The notes under the pieces were generated by a model. That model was not told where the DNA came from. It did not search any database and worked only from the letters and a program-made list of their open reading frames with translations. A stretch of DNA of 64,000 bases from Desulfobulbaceae bacterium (lineage in GTDB: Bacteria > Desulfobacterota > Desulfobulbia > Desulfobulbales > Desulfocapsaceae), in assembly GCA_009773475.1 (NCBI GenBank), contig WSXV01000001.1, positions 1 through 64,000 of the forward strand. The letters run 5' to 3'. This document shows positions 430 to 29,814 of this stretch, piece by piece. Within the stretch, counting starts at the first letter, position 1, and each line of letters starts with the position of its first letter. Position numbers and translations under genes: made by a program.

Positions 430-1736
430 TCAGTAATGTCCGGTTAAGAAATTGCAGCCATGCCACCCAAATATTTTAGAAATAACATGTTTTTCTCTTG
501 ACAAATCAATGAGATAAAATCGCGATTTTTTCATAAGAACCTTATCATTCTAAGGAGTTATGAAAATGTCACGATTCGCGAATCCCGTAAAATACTCAGC
601 ACTATCATTTGCGCAACTGGGGCAGCCCCTCACCAAAATCTTGGGGATAACCCCGCAACTTGAATCCAGATGCAACCGGCCTCTGCAAGTGACATTTGAA
701 GATCAACTCAACGCTCTCATCTTCTTTCACCTGGAGGAGCACACCTCAGGCAGGCACCTTATTCAATCGCTGAAAGAGGATGATTTTGCCAGAACACATA
801 TTGCTCCGGAAAAAGGTATTGCCAAGAGTTCTTTTTCGAGGCCATGAATGCCAGAGGCCTCGAACAGTTTCTTTACGTTTTTGAGGAGTTACAAAAACAA
901 GCCGGAGATCTCTTGCCGCAAAGATTTCCTGAGCTTGGCCAACTGGTGGCAATTGACGGTTCCCTCATTGACGCCGTTCTTTCCATGGCCTGGGCCGATT
1001 ACCGAGGTGGAAGCAAGAAGGCAAAAACACACATCGGTTTTGACATCAATCGCGGTATCCCCCGGAAAATATTTCTGACTGATGGAAAAGGTCCGGAGCG
1101 GCCGTTTGTCTGTCAGATCCTGGAGCCTGGTGAAACAGGGATCCTTGACCGAGGATATCAGTCCCATAAAAACTTTGATCTTCTCCAGCAAGAGGGAAAA
1201 CATTTTGTCTGTCGCATCAAGGCTAACACCATACAGACCTGCCTTGAAAGTTATCCTGTATCAGCCGACAGCATCGTATTTTACGACGCCAAAGTCCTGC
1301 TCGGACAAAAAGGCGTTAATCAGACTAATGAATCTCTCCGTCTAGTTGGCTACCAGATCGGAGACAAACAGTTCTGGATTGCCACAGATCGCTTTGACCT
1401 GACTGCTGAGCAAATTGCCCTTGTCTACAAGCTCCGCTGGGATATTGAGAAGTTTTTCGCCTGGTGGAAGCGACATCTCAAAGTCTATCATCTTATCGCA
1501 AGAAGCCAGCATGGCCTGATGATCCAGATCCTGGCCGGACTCATCACTTATCTCCTTCTGGCTATTTATTGCCATGAACAACATGGTGAATCGGTCAGCA
1601 TTCATAGAGTTCGACAACTGCGCAACCAAATCCTCAATGAAAGCAGGATGACTGAATCACAAATACTTGAACAGAAACAACAACTCAATAAATCAACCAA
1701 AACATTGCATGCAAGTCCTTAACCGGACATTACTGA
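430..1736 (+). mobile_element. IS4-family insertion sequence with 19-bp terminal inverted repeats
   Basis: The element is bounded by a perfect 19-bp inverted repeat, TCAGTAATGTCCGGTTAAG at 430-448 and its reverse complement at 1718-1736. It encloses a single transposase locus. The right repeat overlaps the transposase stop codon, as is common in compact insertion sequences. I found no obvious target-site duplication in the immediate flanks, so the insertion may be old or the flanks rearranged. Confidence 0.85.
560..1722 (+). pseudogene. IS4-family DDE transposase, split by a -1 frameshift
   Basis: Two ORFs (560-847 and 844-1722) form one transposase of about 387 residues. The second carries the DDE signature: D in VAIDGS, D in ILDRGY, and the IS4 YREK motif Y-x2-R-x3-E-x6-K in YKLRWDIEKFFAWWK. 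The first ORF ends after KSSFSRP at a run of five T in tctttttcgag. One extra T would restore SSFFEAMNARG and join the frames. The ORFs overlap by four bases (ATGA), so re-initiation or slippage at the T run could still give some product; a simple one-base deletion is the plainest reading. The AT-rich leader has a Shine-Dalgarno-like aaggag before 560. Confidence 0.8.
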
Positions 1737-16809: not shown

Positions 16810-16838
16810 TTGACAGGGAAAAGATATCGTCATATATC
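16810..16838 (+). promoter_or_regulatory. Sigma-70-type promoter of the arsR-selenoprotein operon
   Basis: TTGACA at 16810-16815 and TATATC at 16833-16838 are separated by 17 bases. The promoter lies about 60 bases before the ArsR-type gene in a markedly AT-rich stretch. Confidence 0.6.
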
Positions 16839-16844
16839 TATATA

Positions 16845-16866
16845 TAAACAACTATTGATATGTTTA
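16845..16866 (+). promoter_or_regulatory. Candidate ArsR-type operator
   Basis: TAAACA-n10-TGTTTA is an inverted repeat a few bases downstream of the -10 box, where autorepression by the adjacent ArsR-type protein would be expected. The assignment rests on symmetry and position only. Confidence 0.4.
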
Positions 16867-16897
16867 TTTTATTGCTCTTAACTTACTGGAACGAAGC

Positions 16898-17278
16898 ATG
16901 ATAATGGCCGGAGAACATGCAATGCACGATGATCAAAGTCCTATTGCAGAGCTAGCTTGTAAAAAATGCGAGTTATTCAATGGAGAATTTCAATCAGTTG
17001 CCTTTTTGGCAAAGAGTCTGTCTGACGAAAACCGATTACGAATTCTCCTTTGTATCAGCCAGGGAAAGAGGGCTGTGGGCAGTATTGTCGAAGAACTTGG
17101 TCTCTCGCAACCCCTTGTTTCCCATCATCTCAAAGAGCTTAAGAGGTCATTGCTGGTAAAAATCGAACGCAGCGGTCCTTTCATCTATTACGAGCTATCA
17201 GATCCTGCCATTCTATTGGCAATAAGGGATTTAAATACGGTGGCAAAAAATCTATTGGCAACTCGAACAACCTTTTAA
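16898..17278 (+). CDS. ArsR-family transcriptional regulator with N-terminal CxxC
   Basis: The 126-residue protein has an ArsR winged helix: LAKSLSDENRLRILLCI, then the recognition region VEELGLSQPLVSHHLKELKRSLLV and a wing. An N-terminal CKKC (residues 21-24) and a cysteine in helix alpha2-like LLCIS could bind a metal or act as a thiol switch. ArsR proteins of the BigR/SqrR type sense persulfide and control rhodanese-type genes; similarity of role is inference from the neighbours. It is the first gene of a tight operon with a 29-base gap and a strong gcaggaggtg ribosome-binding site before the next gene. It probably represses its own promoter. Confidence 0.82.
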   Translation: MIMAGEHAMHDDQSPIAELACKKCELFNGEFQSVAFLAKSLSDENRLRILLCISQGKRAVGSIVEELGLSQPLVSHHLKELKRSLLVKIERSGPFIYYELSDPAILLAIRDLNTVAKNLLATRTTF

Positions 17279-17307
17279 CAGATTCTGCAGGAGGTGATTG
17301 GCTTCTC

Positions 17308-17757
17308 ATGAACGAAATAGAAACGATATTCAATAACCTGGACCCTGAAGATGCGGCAACTCAGACCGCCACCGCGTTGAAACAGCTCCTGCCTTTGCTC
17401 GGAGAGGAAGGCCGGAACCGGTTCATTATGAATCTTTTGGGCGAAACCGGGCAAGACAAGATTTCCAGTATGGTTCATCTCTGACTCGCTGAGTGCATGG
17501 GCGAAGGTGTCGACCCTACACAGATGTGTCAAACCTTAGTGGATAAAGTAGCCCAGTCAAAACAGCTGATGGCAATAACGGACCCGGATCTTCTCGTTTT
17601 ATTTGAAGATTGGTTTGAGGAATTAGAAGAAGAGATTGTTGCCCTGGCAAGAGAGCATGGTCGATTCAATGCAGAGGAACTTGCAAAAAAAATCGGGCTC
17701 TCCTTAAGAGGTGCGACATTTCTTCTTTCAAAGCTCGAACGTGAAGGGAAACTTTAG
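17308..17757 (+). CDS. Putative small selenoprotein of unknown function (Sec59)
   Basis: From the ATG at 17308, behind GCAGGAGGTG, the frame runs 149 codons to 17757 with one interruption: UGA at codon 59 (17482-17484). The track shows only the piece after it (17497-17757). Read as selenocysteine the context is SSMVHL-U-LAEC, giving a Sec and a Cys four residues apart. The N-terminal half is acidic and helical. The C-terminal part, ARE..RFNAEELAKKIGLSLRGATFLLSKLEREGKL in abbreviated form, looks like a winged helix-turn-helix. A hairpin with an AGGUG loop starts 14 bases after the UGA. I do not recognise a family. A nonsense mutation is the alternative, but both halves are intact and three more UGA-containing genes follow. 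Confidence 0.65.
17499..17516 (+). promoter_or_regulatory. SECIS-like hairpin after UGA codon 59
   Basis: GGGCGA and UCG-A-CCC pair with one bulged A around the loop AGGUG. The loop begins 20 bases after the UGA. Bacterial SECIS elements lie just downstream of the UGA and have a small apical loop with a G near its start; the E. coli fdhF loop is AGGUCU. Confidence 0.55.
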
Positions 17758-17795
17758 AATTCACCCGGAATTCACTCGCAAAAAAAGGTATTGTT

Positions 17796-19547
17796 ATGCA
17801 AAATAAAAAAACAACATTTATAGCCTTTTTGGCAGTCCTGCTCACGATTGCAGGCCTTTGGTTTACCAATCGAGCAGTTACTCCCAAGCAGGCTAACTGG
17901 GATGATGTTCTTGCTGAAGGGAAAAATGGGGGCTATCAGGTTATGACGACCGATGAGCTTTCTACCCGCTATCAAAAAGATCCCGGCAGCGTTTTCCTGG
18001 TAGATACCCGCCAGGAATGGGAGTACAGGACAGGACACCTTAAAGATGCTGTAAATTTTCCCATTGAGCCGACCGCTTGGGCAAGATGGCGAAAGGCATC
18101 GGCACTTGAGAAACTCCTTGGGCCTGACAAGAATCGATTTCTTGTCTTCTACTGAGCGGGACTCACCTGAGTCCGCAGTGACTCAGCGGCCCGGGTGGCC
18201 GTAACACTTGGTTACAAAAACGTCCATCGCGACCCATACGGCTTTCCTGAATGGCAAGAAAGAGGTCTGCCGGTCGCGAGTGCTCCCGCTGGACTAGCCC
18301 AAACTACTGAGGAGACCAAGGCACCGGGACCACTCCATGGTTGGGCAATGCTCTGGACTCTCCTTGGAATTTTTGCAGGAGGGATGGCCCTAAATCTAAC
18401 TCCCTGTGTGTATCCATTGATACCGATCACTGTCTCCTATTTTGGTGGTCACGCCACAAAAGGTGGTGAGGGGCGTGGAAAATTGGTGGTACACGGCCTC
18501 TGCTATATGCTTGGCCTGGCTCTTACCAACTCATTGCTCGGGGTGGTTGCATCACTGACAGGCGGCCTCATGGGGGCGATGCTTCAAAATCCATTCGTTC
18601 TTATCGTCGTAGCCGGTGTTCTTGTCTTTTTTGCAACGAGTCTTTTTGGACTATGGGAGATGCGCCTTCCGATCGGCCTCACTCAAGCTGCGGCAAAATC
18701 CTATACGGGCTATTTCGGAACTCTCTTTATGGGAGCAACCCTTGGAGTGGTGGCTGCTCCCTGTATCGGCCCTTTCGTCCTAGGATTGCTTACCTGGGTT
18801 GCGAGCATGGGAAGTCCTTGGATCGGGTTCATCGTCTTTTTTACCTTGAGTCTGGGGCTCGGCCTACCACTCTTTTTTCTTGCAATGTTTTCAGGGCAAC
18901 TGGAAAAGCTTCCCCGCTCAGGTGGTTGGATGATCTGGGTAAGAAAGCTTATGGGATGGGTTCTGGTTGGAATGGCCGCTCATTTCATACGACCTCTTCT
19001 ACCCGGACAAGGGGGAATCATTCTGCTGGCCCTTGTTTCCATATCTGCAGGTCTGCACCTTGGCTGGATTGATAAAAGTCAGGCCAACTTCCGCGCTTTT
19101 CCTTTGCTCAAGAGTGGAGCCGGTATTGCAGCTCTGGTGTTAGCCACTTTTCTTGTTGCAACGATGGCCATGCGAGGCCCAGGTGTTAGCTGGAAACCGT
19201 ATGCTGAGGAAACTCTGAAAGAAGCACAAAACCTTAAAAGGCCTGTCATTATAGATTTTTACGCCACATGGTGCACGCCATGCCGAGAACTTGAAGAGGT
19301 TACGTTTCATCAGCCAGATGTGGTCCGGTTGGCAGAAAAGAACTTTACCATGGTCAAGGTCGATGTGACCAAAGGCGGCAATCCTTATTACGAAGAACTA
19401 CTGAGGAAATACAGTGTGAAAGGGGTGCCAACCATTGTTTTTCTCGATGCTGAGGGCAAGGAACGTACAGACCTCCGTCTCGTAGATTTTTTGCCGGCTG
19501 ATAAGTTTCTTATTCGCATGCGAGACATCGATACACCGAAAAAATAA
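17796..19547 (+). CDS. Rhodanese-DsbD-thioredoxin fusion selenoprotein with two Sec codons
   Basis: The track splits this gene into 17796-18155 and 18195-19547, but both are in one frame with only two UGA codons between (codons 120 and 125). The 583-residue product has an N-terminal membrane anchor (residues 5-25). A rhodanese domain (about 45-150) follows, with VFLVDTRQEWEYRTGH and the active loop Y-U-AGLT-U-VRSDSAARVAVTLGY. In related rhodaneses this loop has two cysteines (YCGGxTCxxS); here both are UGA. Next is a DsbD/CcdA membrane domain (about 180-440) with NLTPCVYPLIP and AAPCIGPF, then a thioredoxin domain with ATWCTPCRELE. The rhodanese replaces the usual DsbD alpha domain. By DsbD topology both terminal domains are periplasmic, so electrons would pass from cytoplasmic thioredoxin to the Sec-containing rhodanese. 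Redox sulfur or selenium transfer is inferred. Confidence 0.8.
18156..18202 (+). promoter_or_regulatory. Overlapping SECIS-like hairpins for the two rhodanese UGA codons
   Basis: After the first UGA (18153-18155), GAGUC-CGCAGU-GACUC forms a hairpin whose loop begins 18 bases downstream. GACUCA-CC-UGAGUC can form an alternative hairpin that hides the second UGA (18168-18170). After the second UGA, GCGGCC-CGGGU-GGCCGU is a six-base stem whose loop begins 21 bases downstream. The segments GACTCA, TGAGTC and GACTCA make the upstream pairings mutually exclusive. Confidence 0.55.
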
Positions 19548-19626
19548 TGATGTCCCGTGAGGGATATTGGTGTCAACTGGAGCAACCCATTTTACGATTT
19601 CAACAAATTCAACACAGGAGAAGATC

Positions 19627-19941
19627 ATGCTCAAAGTCCGCTTTTTTCTCAACGAACCAAACGGCAAACCGTGAAAACATTTCAAACAGATTCTGCCCAG
19701 GTTGGGCGAAAAATATCCGGTAGAATTCGACATCACCTCAAAACCCAAATCTGAATACGAAACCGACGAGTATTTCGCCCTTGATCTGCCCGTTGCTCCA
19801 GCGGTGATGGTTGGCGATGACATTGTCGTGGAAGGTTCTGATGTGTCCGAGCACGATTTAGAGGTGGTTATTTGTCGCCATCTTGGCCTGCCCGAGCCCG
19901 AGAAGAAAGGAATGCTCGGCCGTTTCTTCAAGAAATCTTAA
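19627..19941 (+). CDS. Putative thioredoxin-fold selenoprotein (Sec16), first of two paralogues
   Basis: From the ATG at 19627, behind caggagaag, the frame runs to 19941 with a single UGA at codon 16 (19672-19674). The track lists only the part after it, from a TTG. The 104-residue product begins MLKVRFFLNEPNGKP-U-KHF: a first beta strand, then Sec at the redox-site position of a thioredoxin fold. The later LPVAPAVMVGDDIVVEG resembles the cis-proline loop and last strands of glutaredoxin-like proteins. No signal peptide is present, so it should be cytoplasmic. It could reduce or load the neighbouring fusion protein, or carry sulfur or selenium; both are inference. It aligns along its length with the next gene, including the Sec position. 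Confidence 0.75.
19693..19709 (+). promoter_or_regulatory. SECIS-like hairpin of the first Sec16 gene
   Basis: CUGCCC-AGGUU-GGGCGA: the GCCC/GGGC core stem and a five-base AGGUU loop begin 18 bases after the UGA. The spacing and loop are the same as in the paralogous gene. Confidence 0.65.
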
Positions 19942-19967
19942 ATCATTCAGCTTACTGGAGTGCAATA

Positions 19968-20237
19968 ATGATTAAACTTCGTGTTTTTCTCAATGATCCG
20001 AGAGGGGAAACCTGAGACAGCCTCTACAGTATGATTCCCAGGCTGGGAGTAAAATACAATCTGCAAATTACGACCATCTCCAAAACACGAGAGACTTACC
20101 GGGCGGCGGAATACCAACAAACCGGTCTGCCCATTGCCCCGGCAGTGATGCTGGCCGATGAGCTTCTCGTCCAGGGAGGACCCATTAGTGAGAAGGCGCT
20201 CGAGTTGGCAATCCAACGTCATTCAACAAACGAGTGA
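19968..20237 (+). CDS. Putative thioredoxin-fold selenoprotein (Sec16), second paralogue
   Basis: The ATG at 19968, behind ctggagtgc, opens a frame to 20237 with one UGA at codon 16 (20013-20015). The 89-residue product starts MIKLRVFLNDPRGET-U-DSL and later has PRLGVKY, GLPIAPAVML and ISEKALELAI. These match PRLGEKY, DLPVAPAVMV and VSEHDLEVVI of the gene just upstream, at the same spacing, so the two are tandem duplicates that both kept the UGA. The paralogue lacks the C-terminal 15-residue tail of the first. The track lists only the region after the UGA (20031-20237). Two diverged copies both keeping an in-frame UGA is strong evidence for selenocysteine rather than decay. Confidence 0.75.
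20034..20050 (+). promoter_or_regulatory. SECIS-like hairpin of the second Sec16 gene
   Basis: AUUCCC-AGGCU-GGGAGU has six pairs (one U-G) and a five-base AGGCU loop, starting 18 bases after the UGA. Stem bases differ from the paralogue (GCCC/GGGC against UCCC/GGGA) with a compensating change, while loop and spacing are kept. Confidence 0.65.
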
Positions 20238-20352
20238 CGTTGGAACATTCAGCTGATTGGATGATAATTTTCTATTCAATTTCCAGGTATTAACCCTATA
20301 CGTTCGAGTTGAAAATCTCAGTTCGAATACTAGATCAAAAGGGAAAATAAAA

Positions 20353-21078
20353 ATGGCTGGACAGGAAAATAACAAGAAAGGTACTGCGCTGGTAAAGATG
20401 GCCTTTCTGCTCATCTTCATTGGGATGGCGATTTATTTGGTTCGATTTTCCCCTGCGAGGCTGTATCTCACGACGGCTCAGCTTGAGCTTTATCTGGATT
20501 CTGTAGGTCTCTGGGCACCCTTGATATTTGTGATCATCTATGTGGTCGGTGTCTGTCTTTTTGTTCCCGGTACGCTGCTGACGGCATTGGGGGCCGCTAT
20601 TTTCGGCCCCTACTGGGGGTTCCTCTACGTCTGGACAGGAGCGATGATCGGCGCAGGTCTTGCGTTTCTCATTGGTCGATATCTTGGACGGGACTTTGCC
20701 GCTTCTCTCATCGGCGATAGGCTGAAACGTTTTGACGATGCAATTGAGCGTAACGGCTTTGCAACAGTCCTTTATTTAAGGCTTATGTATTTCCCATTCA
20801 CTCCAATGAATTTTGGCATGGGATTGACCAAGGTTCGCTTTTGGGATTACATTTCAGGCACGGCGCTGGGTATTTTGGTAGGCACCTTTATTTTCACTTT
20901 TTTTGTGGGAACGCTGCGTGATGTTTGGGCCACAGGGAGGGTGGAAGAGTTGTTAAGCTGGAAGGTTTTTCTCTCTGTGATCCTTTTCGTTTCTTCATTT
21001 TTCATCCCTAAGTTTCTGAAAATGATCAAGGGAACTGGAAAGCTATCCACGACAGCCGACCAGCGGGAAAAAAACTGA
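20353..21078 (+). CDS. TVP38/TMEM64-family (SNARE-associated/DedA superfamily) membrane protein
   Basis: The 241-residue inner-membrane protein has about six hydrophobic segments. The SNARE-associated core includes FVPGTLLTALGAAIFGPYWGFLYVW, then GAGLAFLIGRYLGRDF, and RLMYFPFTPMNFGMGLT. Members are thought to act in membrane or lipid homeostasis, and a related DedA protein has been linked to selenite resistance in Cupriavidus. The track starts at 20257, but aaaaggga lies before the ATG at 20353, which gives the more usual N-terminus. It follows the selenoprotein genes in the same direction with a 115-base gap and is probably the last gene of the operon. Transport of a selenium or sulfur species is possible but unproven. 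Confidence 0.8.
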   Translation: MAGQENNKKGTALVKMAFLLIFIGMAIYLVRFSPARLYLTTAQLELYLDSVGLWAPLIFVIIYVVGVCLFVPGTLLTALGAAIFGPYWGFLYVWTGAMIGAGLAFLIGRYLGRDFAASLIGDRLKRFDDAIERNGFATVLYLRLMYFPFTPMNFGMGLTKVRFWDYISGTALGILVGTFIFTFFVGTLRDVWATGRVEELLSWKVFLSVILFVSSFFIPKFLKMIKGTGKLSTTADQREKN

Positions 21079-27415: not shown

Positions 27416-27444
27416 TTGACGAAAATCTGACTATACAATATATA
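27416..27444 (+). promoter_or_regulatory. Sigma-70-type promoter of nrdDG
   Basis: TTGACG and TATATA are separated by 17 bases and lie immediately before the cobalamin riboswitch. The 27154-27415 interval shows nothing recognisable. Confidence 0.6.
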
Positions 27445-27450
27445 GGGATT

Positions 27451-27625
27451 TGGCGATTCGTCACTCTTCATTACAAGAGTGACGAAAAGGGAACCCGGTG
27501 AAAATCCGGGGCTGTCGCGCAGCGGTAATCAGGAACGAACGTTATCAGAGCCACTGGCCAGGTTTGGTTGGGAAGGGATAACCAGTAGGTTGCAATATGC
27601 CTGAAAGTCCGAATACCTGTCGCCA
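27451..27625 (+). promoter_or_regulatory. Cobalamin (B12) riboswitch in the nrdD leader
   Basis: The conserved aptamer landmarks occur in order: AAAGGGAAcCCGGTGaAAATCCGGGgC (read in part), the core gCTGTCGCGCagCGGTAAT, the B12 box GCCACTGG, GGGAAGGG, and the closing AGTCCGAATACCTGTCGCC. TGGCGA at 27451 pairs with TCGCCA at 27620 to close P1. A hairpin gcag-a-tccgac/gtcgga-ctgc at 27631-27654 may be part of the expression platform. High cobalamin is expected to shut off the B12-independent reductase downstream. Confidence 0.9.
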
Positions 27626-27693
27626 TTACAGCAGATCCGACAACAGTCGGACTGCATTCCATTCACTCATCACCTCGCGTAAAGGAGAGAGTC

Positions 27694-29814
27694 ATGTCCC
27701 AGGCTATTCCGCAGCAGTTCGTCCAGTTATTCACCTCTATCAGAAAAAGAGATCAGCGCCTTGTTGATTTTCAATCCGAAAAGATAACCAAAGCACTCTG
27801 TAAGGCTGGTCTGGTAACAGGCGAGATAGACCTGCCTGAAGCACGTCGGCTCACCATGCAAATCCTGGCCATAGCCCAGAATATGTTTGCCGAGACAATC
27901 CCTGGTGTTGAAGATATTCAGGATCTGGTTGAAGAGGTCTTGTTGTCATCCGTCTACAAGAAGACGGCCAAGGCCTATATCCTGTATCGCGATCAACATG
28001 CCCGTCTCCGTGATATGGTGACGAAAACCGATCTTGATTTGATCGATGGCTATCTGCAGAAACTTGACTGGCAAGTCCAGGAAAACTCCAACATGTCCTA
28101 TTCACTCCAGGGATTGAATAACTACATTTCCAGCGAGGTGAGCAAAACCTACTGGCTAAACAAAATTTATCCATCAGAGGTACGGAAAGCTCATCAACAG
28201 GGGGATCTGCATATCCATGATCTTGGTTTGCTGTCGGTCTATTGTGTGGGTTGGGATCTTCGGGATCTGCTGAAAAAAGGCTTTACCGGGGCGGCGGGAA
28301 AGGCTGAAAGCGCTCCAGCCCGACATTTTCGCAGTGCCCTTGGCCAGATAGTTAATTTTTTCTATACATTGCAGGGTGAGGCTGCAGGAGCCCAGGCCTT
28401 CTCCAGTTTCGACACCTTTCTGGCCCCGTTTATCCGTTATGATAAGCTCAGCTACCGTGAAATTAAACAGGCCTTGCAGGAATTCGTGTTCAATCTCAAT
28501 GTCCCGACGCGAGTTGGCTTTCAAACTCCATTTACCAATCTGACGATGGATCTGAGACCGCCGTCAACGTTGAAAAACTCGCCGGTAATCATCGGCGGTA
28601 AGGAACAGGATACCAGCTATAACGACTATCAGGACGAAATGAACCTGCTGAATCAAGCCTTTCTAGAGGTCATGGCGGAAGGTGATGCTAAGGGGCGGGT
28701 TTTCACCTTTCCGATCCCAACTTATAACATCACGGCTGATTTCGACTGGGAAGATCCCAGCCTTGACAAGTTGTGGAGTATCACTGCTCGATACGGCCTG
28801 CCGTATTTTGCCAATTTTATCAATTCCGATATGAGCCCGGACGATACCAGGTCGATGTGCTGCCGACTCAGGCTCGACACCCGGGAGCTGGAAAAGCGCG
28901 GAGGTGGCCTCTTCGGGGCCAATCCACTGACTGGCTCGATCGGGGTGGTGACGATCAATATGGCGGCCATTGGTTATCAGGCATCAGACGAGGCCGATTT
29001 TTTCAGGCGCCTTGATGAATTGATGCTGATAGCCCGGACGTCTCTTGAAACCAAGAGAAAAGTGCTGGAGACTTTCACCAACAAGGGGCTCTATCCCTAC
29101 ACCCGGTTCTATCTGCGCAATGTTCATGAGCGCTTTGGCCGATTCTGGGAAAACCACTTTTCCACTATTGGCCTGATTGGCGTGAATGAAGCCTGTCTTA
29201 ATTTATTTTCTGTCGGTATCGGTGAGGAAAAGGGGCGGCAGTTTGCTTTGAGAATTCTTGATCATATGCGGCGGAGTCTTTTGCAGTTCCAGGAGGAGAC
29301 AGGCAATCAGTATAATCTTGAGGCAACTCCGGCTGAGGGAACAGGACACCGGCTGGCCCAGATTGATGCGCACCGATTTCCGGAAATGGCAGCTTCTTTA
29401 ACCTGCGGTGGAGCTGATATGTTGCCAATCTATGCTAATTCAACGCAACTGCCGGTCAATTACACGGATGACATTTTCACCTTGCTCGATCATCAGGATG
29501 AATTGCAAACCAGATATACCGGGGGGACAGTGGTACACTGCTTCATTGGTGAATCCGATATCGACCCTGCCGCAGTTAAATCGTTTGTTAAAACGGTCTG
29601 TTCTCAGTACAGGCTACCTTATTTTACCCTCACGCCGACATTTTCCATCTGTCCACAACATGGGTATCTGGCAGGTGAGCAGAAGCAGTGCCCGCACTGC
29701 CGGATAGCAACCGAGGTGTATTCCCGGGTGGTTGGCTACTTGAGACCGGTTCAACAGTGGCATGAAGGCAAGCAGGCAGAATTTGCTGCTCGTTCTAATT
29801 TTCGTCTGGCCTGA
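27694..29814 (+). CDS. nrdD: Anaerobic (class III) ribonucleoside-triphosphate reductase NrdD
   Basis: The 706-residue enzyme has an N-terminal ATP-cone (RKRDQRLVDFQSEKITKAL) and the large glycyl-radical barrel. A C-terminal zinc site is formed by two cysteine pairs (CPQHGY and CPHCR). The glycyl-radical region is RVVGYLRPVQQW. It reduces ribonucleotides to deoxyribonucleotides without oxygen or B12, using a glycyl radical made by NrdG. An upstream cobalamin riboswitch suggests it is the back-up for a B12-dependent class II enzyme encoded elsewhere; that partner is inferred. The ribosome-binding site aaaggagaga precedes the ATG. Confidence 0.95.
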   Translation: MSQAIPQQFVQLFTSIRKRDQRLVDFQSEKITKALCKAGLVTGEIDLPEARRLTMQILAIAQNMFAETIPGVEDIQDLVEEVLLSSVYKKTAKAYILYRDQHARLRDMVTKTDLDLIDGYLQKLDWQVQENSNMSYSLQGLNNYISSEVSKTYWLNKIYPSEVRKAHQQGDLHIHDLGLLSVYCVGWDLRDLLKKGFTGAAGKAESAPARHFRSALGQIVNFFYTLQGEAAGAQAFSSFDTFLAPFIRYDKLSYREIKQALQEFVFNLNVPTRVGFQTPFTNLTMDLRPPSTLKNSPVIIGGKEQDTSYNDYQDEMNLLNQAFLEVMAEGDAKGRVFTFPIPTYNITADFDWEDPSLDKLWSITARYGLPYFANFINSDMSPDDTRSMCCRLRLDTRELEKRGGGLFGANPLTGSIGVVTINMAAIGYQASDEADFFRRLDELMLIARTSLETKRKVLETFTNKGLYPYTRFYLRNVHERFGRFWENHFSTIGLIGVNEACLNLFSVGIGEEKGRQFALRILDHMRRSLLQFQEETGNQYNLEATPAEGTGHRLAQIDAHRFPEMAASLTCGGADMLPIYANSTQLPVNYTDDIFTLLDHQDELQTRYTGGTVVHCFIGESDIDPAAVKSFVKTVCSQYRLPYFTLTPTFSICPQHGYLAGEQKQCPHCRIATEVYSRVVGYLRPVQQWHEGKQAEFAARSNFRLA

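What the first reader, a model, noticed from the sequence alone, without database searches (positions are those of the whole stretch)
16810..21078. An apparent selenoprotein operon: five in-frame UGA codons in four consecutive genes
Between an ArsR-type regulator and a TVP38-type membrane protein, all four ORFs are interrupted only by UGA (codon 59; codons 120 and 125; codon 16; codon 16), never by UAA or UAG and without a frameshift. Each UGA is followed by a hairpin with a short G-containing loop at SECIS-like distance. Conventional ORF calling breaks all four genes, so the operon would be misannotated as fragments. Selenocysteine is established in sulfate-reducing Desulfobacterota; this gene combination is, to my knowledge, not described.
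Basis: partly seen in the sequence, partly recalled or inferred. Interest (0 to 1): 0.95.

Follow-up and report, generated by a model that had tools for sequence, protein, structure and literature searches.

The report
A known selenoprotein operon, Tso type
Four neighbouring genes that look broken by stop codons are genuine selenium-containing redox proteins, but they form the already named 'Tso' (three-selenoprotein operon) of sulfate-reducing bacteria, so the find is real and not new; what Tso does in the cell is still untested.

Summary
Five in-frame UGA codons, and no UAA or UAG, lie in four consecutive genes between an ArsR-type regulator and a TVP38/VTT membrane protein. The selenocysteine (Sec) reading is strongly supported. 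The genome has selA, selB, tRNA-Sec and a SelD that itself contains a UGA. Among relatives, UGA sits at the same position in 123 TsoA, 107 TsoC and 69 TsoB (both sites); I found no Cys form of the three families. Conserved G-loop hairpins follow the UGAs.

The claim that the combination is undescribed is wrong. NCBIfam holds exact models, all far above cut-off: TsoR, TsoA (LULAXC), TsoB (rhodanese/DsbD fusion) and TsoC (NEPxGxxU, two copies here). A 2026 review names the Tso operon and credits Haft & Tolstoy 2025.

My additions: a conserved palindromic operator upstream of tsoR; TsoC has a thioredoxin fold; TsoR-TsoA is a near-constant pair whose partners vary (TsoB/TsoC/VTT or a DsrE-type selenoprotein). 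Most likely mechanism: a repressor-controlled, membrane-spanning selenol/thiol relay handling reactive sulfur or related chalcogens; the substrate is unknown.

The parts
16810..16815 (+). TTGACA, likely -35 box of the tso promoter
   Evidence: sequence; TTGACA followed within 35 nt by an AT-rich operator-like half site in 57 of 114 tsoR upstream regions. Inferred, not measured; the generic promoter scan did not list it
16842..16867 (+). putative TsoR operator: ATATAAACAACTATTGATATGTTTAT, imperfect palindrome (family form ATATAAAT-n-ATTTATAT)
   Evidence: 14/16 match; at least 14/16 in 65 of 114 tsoR upstream regions against 1.1% of shuffles; the pattern has this one place in the whole genome
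16898..17278 (+). tsoR, ArsR/SmtB-type regulator
   Evidence: Pfam HTH_5 1.3e-12; NCBIfam NF045707 TsoR 6.7e-47, 157.6 bits against cut-off 115
17308..17757 (+). tsoA, LULAXC-motif selenoprotein, 149 aa with Sec59; helical with a winged-helix-like C-terminus
   Evidence: NF045695 7.3e-67, 224 bits against cut-off 170; HTH_24 1.8e-4, just below Pfam cut-off
17482..17484 (+). UGA codon 59 (Sec)
   Evidence: UGA in 123 homologues
17499..17516 (+). SECIS-like hairpin of tsoA (GGGCGA AGGUG UCGACCC)
   Evidence: 167 of 172 stem cells paired over 43 loci
17796..19547 (+). tsoB, rhodanese-DsbD-thioredoxin fusion, 583 aa with Sec120 and Sec125
   Evidence: Pfam Rhodanese 53-155, DsbD_TM 186-401, Thioredoxin_7 466-552; NF045694 8e-303, 1005 bits against cut-off 805; invariant C204, C323, C493, C496
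18153..18155 (+). UGA codon 120 (Sec), at the rhodanese catalytic-Cys position of the motif FYUxGxxU
   Evidence: UGA in 69 homologues; Cys or Cys/Sec in other rhodaneses aligned there
18168..18170 (+). UGA codon 125 (Sec)
18186..18202 (+). SECIS-like hairpin of tsoB (GCGGCC CGGGU GGCCGU)
   Evidence: 227 of 231 stem cells paired over 21 loci, counting this stem and the smaller one before it
19627..19941 (+). tsoC copy 1, NEPxGxxU selenoprotein, thioredoxin fold, Sec16
   Evidence: NF045708 1.2e-43; model pLDDT 91 matching thioredoxins
19672..19674 (+). UGA codon 16 (Sec) of tsoC1
19695..19707 (+). SECIS-like hairpin of tsoC1 (GCCCA GGU UGGGC)
   Evidence: 166 of 170 stem cells paired over 34 sites
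19968..20237 (+). tsoC copy 2, Sec16; UGA at codon 90 is the true end
   Evidence: NF045708 9.8e-34
20013..20015 (+). UGA codon 16 (Sec) of tsoC2
20036..20048 (+). SECIS-like hairpin of tsoC2 (UCCCA GGC UGGGA)
20353..21078 (+). TVP38/DedA-type (VTT) membrane protein, no UGA
   Evidence: PF09335 7e-25; a homologue in 34 of 69 loci with TsoB

Best explanation
This is a Tso operon (tsoR-tsoA-tsoB-tsoC-tsoC-VTT) of a sulfate-reducer relative in Desulfobacterota, with all five UGAs read as selenocysteine. Shown here: the gene order, the UGA positions and their conservation, the complete Sec machinery in the genome, the conserved hairpins, the domains and redox cysteines of TsoB, the predicted thioredoxin fold of TsoC, and the conserved palindrome upstream of tsoR. 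Inferred: TsoR binds the palindrome over the promoter and represses the operon until an effector appears. TsoB passes electrons from a cytoplasmic thioredoxin through its DsbD-type membrane core (C204/C323) to its periplasmic thioredoxin domain (C493/C496) and on to its periplasmic rhodanese domain, whose two selenols (U120/U125) take the place of the catalytic Cys. The small TsoC proteins act as thioredoxin-fold selenol partners. TsoA is a selenol/thiol partner (U59, C63, C74) with a DNA-binding-like tail, possibly working with TsoR. The most likely task is reducing or transferring reactive sulfur (persulfide, thiosulfate, polysulfide) or a related chalcogen or metalloid species at the cell envelope.
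For: Identity: NCBIfam TsoR/TsoA/TsoB/TsoC hits above curated cut-offs and end to end. Sec machinery: tRNA-Sec 69 bits with anticodon tca; SelB 392 bits; SelA 622 bits; SelD 375 bits, itself with one UGA. Conservation: TsoA 123 UGA, TsoC 107, TsoB 69 double UGA; TsoA in 46 of 395 Desulfobacterota genomes, none of 14 controls. Hairpins with a short G-bearing loop about 20-26 nt after UGA, stems paired in 97-98% of cells. TsoR directly upstream of TsoA in 114 of 115 loci that have the space. Operator: 65 of 114 upstream regions against 1.1% of shuffles, one genomic site here. DsbD-type cysteines C204/C323 and C493/C496 invariant. TsoC model pLDDT 91, best matches thioredoxins. Sulfur theme: where TsoB is absent, a DsrE-type selenoprotein often follows TsoA (19 of 61 against 0 of 69, p 1e-7); TauE/SafE sulfite-exporter (3) and SLAC1/TsoY (4) genes also occur there.
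Against: No expression, 75Se or peptide data. The substrate is inferred from families only. TsoR has no conserved cysteine, so it is not a classic As(III) or persulfide thiol sensor. The TsoA model is poor (pTM 0.40), so its role is a guess. VTT/DedA proteins also have lipid-flippase roles unrelated to sulfur (PMC10127716). Covariation in the TsoA hairpin is strong as an association (p 3e-20) but rests on about four changes on the tree. Foldseek matches for TsoC are modest (best E 2e-3). The defining paper could not be read.
Confidence: 0.88

Rival explanations
1. The same operon mainly serves metalloid or mercury defence: TsoR senses a metal(loid), VTT moves it or protects the membrane, and the selenoproteins bind or reduce it.
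For: ArsR/SmtB family regulator; NCBIfam calls TsoR a metalloregulator; arsenite-methyltransferase-like selenoproteins and the metal-binding selenoprotein MbdU lie near some TsoA genes that lack TsoB; COG0398 DedA proteins can be fused to mercuric-reductase-type domains (PMC10127716).
Against: No conserved Cys in TsoR; no arsenic or mercury resistance gene seen beside the operon in the window stretch read; partner genes are more often DsrE or rhodanese type.
Confidence: 0.25
2. Some or all UGAs are read as cysteine by a second tRNA-Sec-like gene (selC*-type tRNA-Cys with UCA anticodon), so the proteins are partly Cys proteins.
For: A second tRNA-Sec-like gene with UCA anticodon and U73-CCA exists in this genome (L002) and intact in several members of the genus; selC* tRNA-Cys with UCA anticodon is described in Desulfobacterales (PMC7609411).
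Against: The copy in this genome has a damaged acceptor stem; no second SelB above cut-off and no SelB* or CysRS* recognised in the ORFs beside it; a normal tRNA-Sec is present; SECIS-like hairpins are conserved.
Confidence: 0.04
3. The genes are decaying pseudogenes or the UGAs are sequencing errors.
For: Stops interrupt all four frames under table 11.
Against: Only UGA, only at motif positions, conserved in over 100 independent loci with the reading frame kept downstream.
Confidence: 0.01

Closest known systems
Tso (three-selenoprotein operon): TsoR NF045707, TsoA NF045695, TsoB NF045694, TsoC NF045708 (Haft & Tolstoy 2025, as cited in PMC13188914)
   Same: Same four families, same Sec positions (LULAXC, UxxxxU, NEPxGxxU), and the same gene order and Desulfobacterota hosts as the relatives examined here
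   Different: Two tsoC copies (five Sec in all) and a VTT gene; both also occur in other tso loci seen here (28 of 69 TsoB loci with two or more tsoC, 34 of 69 with VTT), so this is variation inside the type
DsbD, inner-membrane thiol:disulfide reductase (NF001419/PRK00293)
   Same: DsbD_TM core, conserved membrane cysteines, C-terminal thioredoxin domain with CxxC
   Different: The N-terminal alpha domain is replaced by a rhodanese domain with two Sec; the protein scores 242 bits, below the DsbD cut-off of 330
Single-domain rhodaneses, including rhodanese-related (seleno)proteins (NF041203)
   Same: Rhodanese domain with the active-site Cys position occupied by Sec
   Different: Fused to a DsbD core and carrying a UxxxxU pair; 29 bits against a cut-off of 115
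Thioredoxin / glutaredoxin fold proteins
   Same: TsoC has the fold and an active-site loop ahead of the first helix
   Different: GxxU instead of CxxC; no significant sequence match to solved thioredoxins

Membership tests
Tso operon | TsoA, TsoB and TsoC each above the curated NCBIfam cut-off | tested here: met
   224/170, 1005/805, 147/45 and 115/45 bits
Tso operon | Sec (UGA) at the motif positions LUxAxC, UxxxxU and GxxU | tested here: met
   alignments
Tso operon | ArsR-type TsoR directly upstream, genes on one strand | tested here: met
   157.6 bits against cut-off 115; 29-nt gap; 114 of 115 relatives
Selenoprotein genes (bacterial Sec decoding) | selA, selB, selC and selD in the genome | tested here: met
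Selenoprotein genes (bacterial Sec decoding) | bSECIS hairpin with G in a short apical loop about 16-37 nt after UGA (rule recalled from memory) | tested here: met
   present at all five sites and conserved; the loose model alone does not discriminate
Selenoprotein genes (bacterial Sec decoding) | Homologues with Cys or Sec at the UGA positions | tested here: met
   Sec in full-length homologues with one exception (Arg in the TsoA of L105); Cys only in more distant rhodaneses
Selenoprotein genes (bacterial Sec decoding) | Selenium shown in the protein | not testable with these tools
   needs 75Se labelling or mass spectrometry
DsbD | Curated DsbD model above cut-off | tested here: not met
   242 against 330 bits; has a DsbD-like core, is not filed as DsbD
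ArsR thiol-based metalloregulators (ArsR, CmtR, BigR) | Conserved sensing cysteines | tested here: not met
   no invariant Cys in 24 TsoR; the CxxC of the window is not kept even in near relatives

The most novel reading that the evidence does not exclude
TsoR and TsoA form a Sec-dependent regulatory pair: the selenol of TsoA (with C63 and C74) senses a reactive sulfur or selenium species and sets TsoR binding at its dedicated palindrome. The pair then drives interchangeable selenoprotein modules (TsoB/TsoC/VTT in some genomes, DsrE-type or TsoX/TsoY in others), and expression depends on the cell being able to insert Sec.
Probability: 0.12. Interest if true: 0.6.

Novelty: already known. Interest (0 to 1): 0.22.

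Why it matters
The find is a clean positive control for reading selenoprotein operons from raw sequence. It also makes the Tso system easier to test: an operator to probe, a near-constant TsoR-TsoA pair, partner modules that share sulfur-transfer domains (rhodanese, DsrE), and Sec never replaced by Cys in the sampled families, which suggests the chemistry needs selenium. The function of Tso remains open.

Tried and rejected
Haft & Tolstoy 2025 and Haft & Gwadz 2023 are not held in the library, so I rely on a review for the naming.

Hairpin energy as proof of SECIS: a loose model finds hairpins at most positions, so I used conservation instead. The tree-based covariation test had too few independent changes to decide.

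PDB sequence profiles for TsoA and TsoC gave nothing convincing. The TsoA structure model is too uncertain to search.

A reading of UGA as a general sense codon was rejected: the second tsoC ends in UGA, and the neighbouring genes are ordinary table-11 ORFs. Pseudogene or sequencing error was rejected by conservation. A conserved Cys sensor in TsoR was looked for and not found. The generic promoter scan was uninformative.

Full report
Observation. Four same-strand frames between an ArsR-type gene (16898-17278) and a VTT-domain gene (20353-21078) are each open except for UGA: codon 59; codons 120 and 125; codon 16; codon 16. Their ends are TAG, TAA, TAA and TGA. Plain table-11 ORF listing gives only fragments.

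Identity. Read through UGA, the proteins match curated NCBIfam models end to end and above cut-off: TsoR NF045707 (6.7e-47), TsoA NF045695 'LULAXC motif selenoprotein' (7.3e-67), TsoB NF045694 'rhodanese/DsbD fusion-like selenoprotein' (8e-303) and TsoC NF045708 'NEPxGxxU motif selenoprotein' for both small genes (1.2e-43, 9.8e-34). A 2026 review lists TsoA, TsoB and TsoC with these motifs and names the Tso (three selenoprotein operon), citing Haft & Tolstoy, mSystems 2025 (PMC13188914). I could not read the primary paper. The statement that this combination is not described is therefore wrong.

Sec machinery. The genome (3.03 Mb, 91% complete) has tRNA-Sec (69 bits, anticodon tca), SelA, SelB and SelD, the last itself carrying one UGA.

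Conservation. In 395 Desulfobacterota genomes, TsoA occurs in 46 and in none of 14 control genomes. Together with 80 named loci from genome contigs (nearest: Desulfobulbaceae bacterium BRH_c16a, Desulfoprunum benzoelyticum, Desulforhopalus), I examined 130 loci; some may be the same record reached by two routes. TsoA has UGA in 123; of the rest, one has Arg (L105) and eight are weaker or partial homologues with Met, a gap or no coverage at that position. TsoC has UGA in 107 and TsoB has the UGA pair in 69. No Cys version of TsoA, TsoB or TsoC was seen; Cys at the rhodanese positions appears only in more distant rhodaneses.

SECIS. Each UGA in the window is followed by a hairpin that fits the bacterial SECIS rule as I recall it. 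A loose model finds such hairpins at 69-89% of other positions too, so the presence of a hairpin proves little. Across homologues, however, RNAalifold finds one conserved short hairpin per gene, with G in the loop, about 20-26 nt after UGA, and its pairs hold in 97-98% of cells, far above slid controls. In TsoA one stem pair changes between A-U and G-C, with the Asp codon GAT/GAC following (106 of 111 informative sequences, p 3e-20; other Asp codons show no such bias). On the tree this is only about four changes, so it is suggestive and not decisive.

Architecture. TsoB has an N-terminal hydrophobic segment (6-24), a rhodanese domain (53-155) with FYUxGxxU, a DsbD membrane core (186-401) and a thioredoxin domain (466-552). 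C204, C323, C493 and C496 are invariant in 19 homologues. By analogy with DsbD (established knowledge), the rhodanese and thioredoxin domains would be periplasmic. TsoC is predicted with confidence (pLDDT 91) as a thioredoxin fold with Sec in a GxxU motif. TsoA is helical with a winged-helix-like C-terminus; its model is uncertain around the Sec, but V56, U59, C63, G67 and P70 are invariant or nearly so in both alignments and C74 nearly so.

Regulation. TsoR lies directly upstream of TsoA in 114 of 115 loci that allow the test, with a median gap of 28 nt. Upstream of tsoR a palindrome of the form ATATAAAT-n-ATTTATAT matches at 14 of 16 or better in 65 of 114 loci against 1.1% of shuffles, and 57 of 114 have TTGACA just before such a site. 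The site in the window (16842-16867) is the only match to its pattern in the genome, which points to a dedicated local regulator. TsoR has no conserved cysteine.

Partners. Of 69 loci with TsoB, 59 have at least one tsoC (28 have two or more) and 34 have a VTT gene, so the duplicated tsoC and the VTT gene of this window are ordinary variation. Loci without TsoB often carry a DsrE-family selenoprotein just after TsoA (19 of 61 against 0 of 69), TsoX or TsoY, or a TauE/SafE exporter. DsrE-like selenoproteins are a known family; I found no statement of their link to TsoA in the text I could read. Rhodanese and DsrE are both sulfur-transfer folds (established knowledge), which is the main ground for proposing a reactive-sulfur or chalcogen role.

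Mechanism and limits. I propose a repressor-controlled relay that brings cytoplasmic electrons through TsoB to a selenol rhodanese site, with TsoC and TsoA as selenol partners. The electron path through TsoB follows from domain homology; the substrate, the effector of TsoR and the role of TsoA and VTT are inference. The confidence of 0.88 refers to the identity and the Sec reading with this general kind of redox function; for reactive sulfur as the specific substrate I would give about 0.4.

Verdict. Real, correctly read as selenoproteins, and already known as the Tso operon.

Noticed in passing
L002:1501-1598 (G000:C4:41122-41219); L209-L214 in the same genus: A second tRNA-Sec-like gene with UCA anticodon, long variable arm and encoded CCA after U73, lying between an HdrA-like and an MvhD-like gene. 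Intact cloverleaf in five genus members; in the window's genome and in one further copy the acceptor stem is mismatched. Resembles the selC* tRNA-Cys of delta-proteobacteria (PMC7609411), but no selB* or cysS* was recognised beside it.
   Followed up: partly
L051, L058, L066, L071, L072, L141, L153, L160, L168 and others, just downstream of TsoA: A DsrE-family selenoprotein (UGxC motif, no NCBIfam match) follows TsoR-TsoA where TsoB is missing and was never found together with TsoB.
   Followed up: partly
L094, L096 (second TsoA-like hits of G278 and G236): Short proteins homologous only to the C-terminal half of TsoA, without Sec, sit beside an ArsR-type regulator and a VTT gene; possibly a Sec-free relative or a stripped form of the system.
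   Followed up: no
L105, TsoA: One TsoA in an otherwise complete tso locus has Arg in place of the UGA codon; loss of Sec or an assembly error.
   Followed up: no
window 27437-27638: Cobalamin riboswitch (93.5 bits) just ahead of an anaerobic ribonucleotide reductase gene (27589-29814).
   Followed up: no
window 784-1722: DDE-type transposase (PF01609) near the left end of the window.
   Followed up: no
G000:C1:92095-93036 (L047): SelD of this genome is itself UGA-containing.
   Followed up: no
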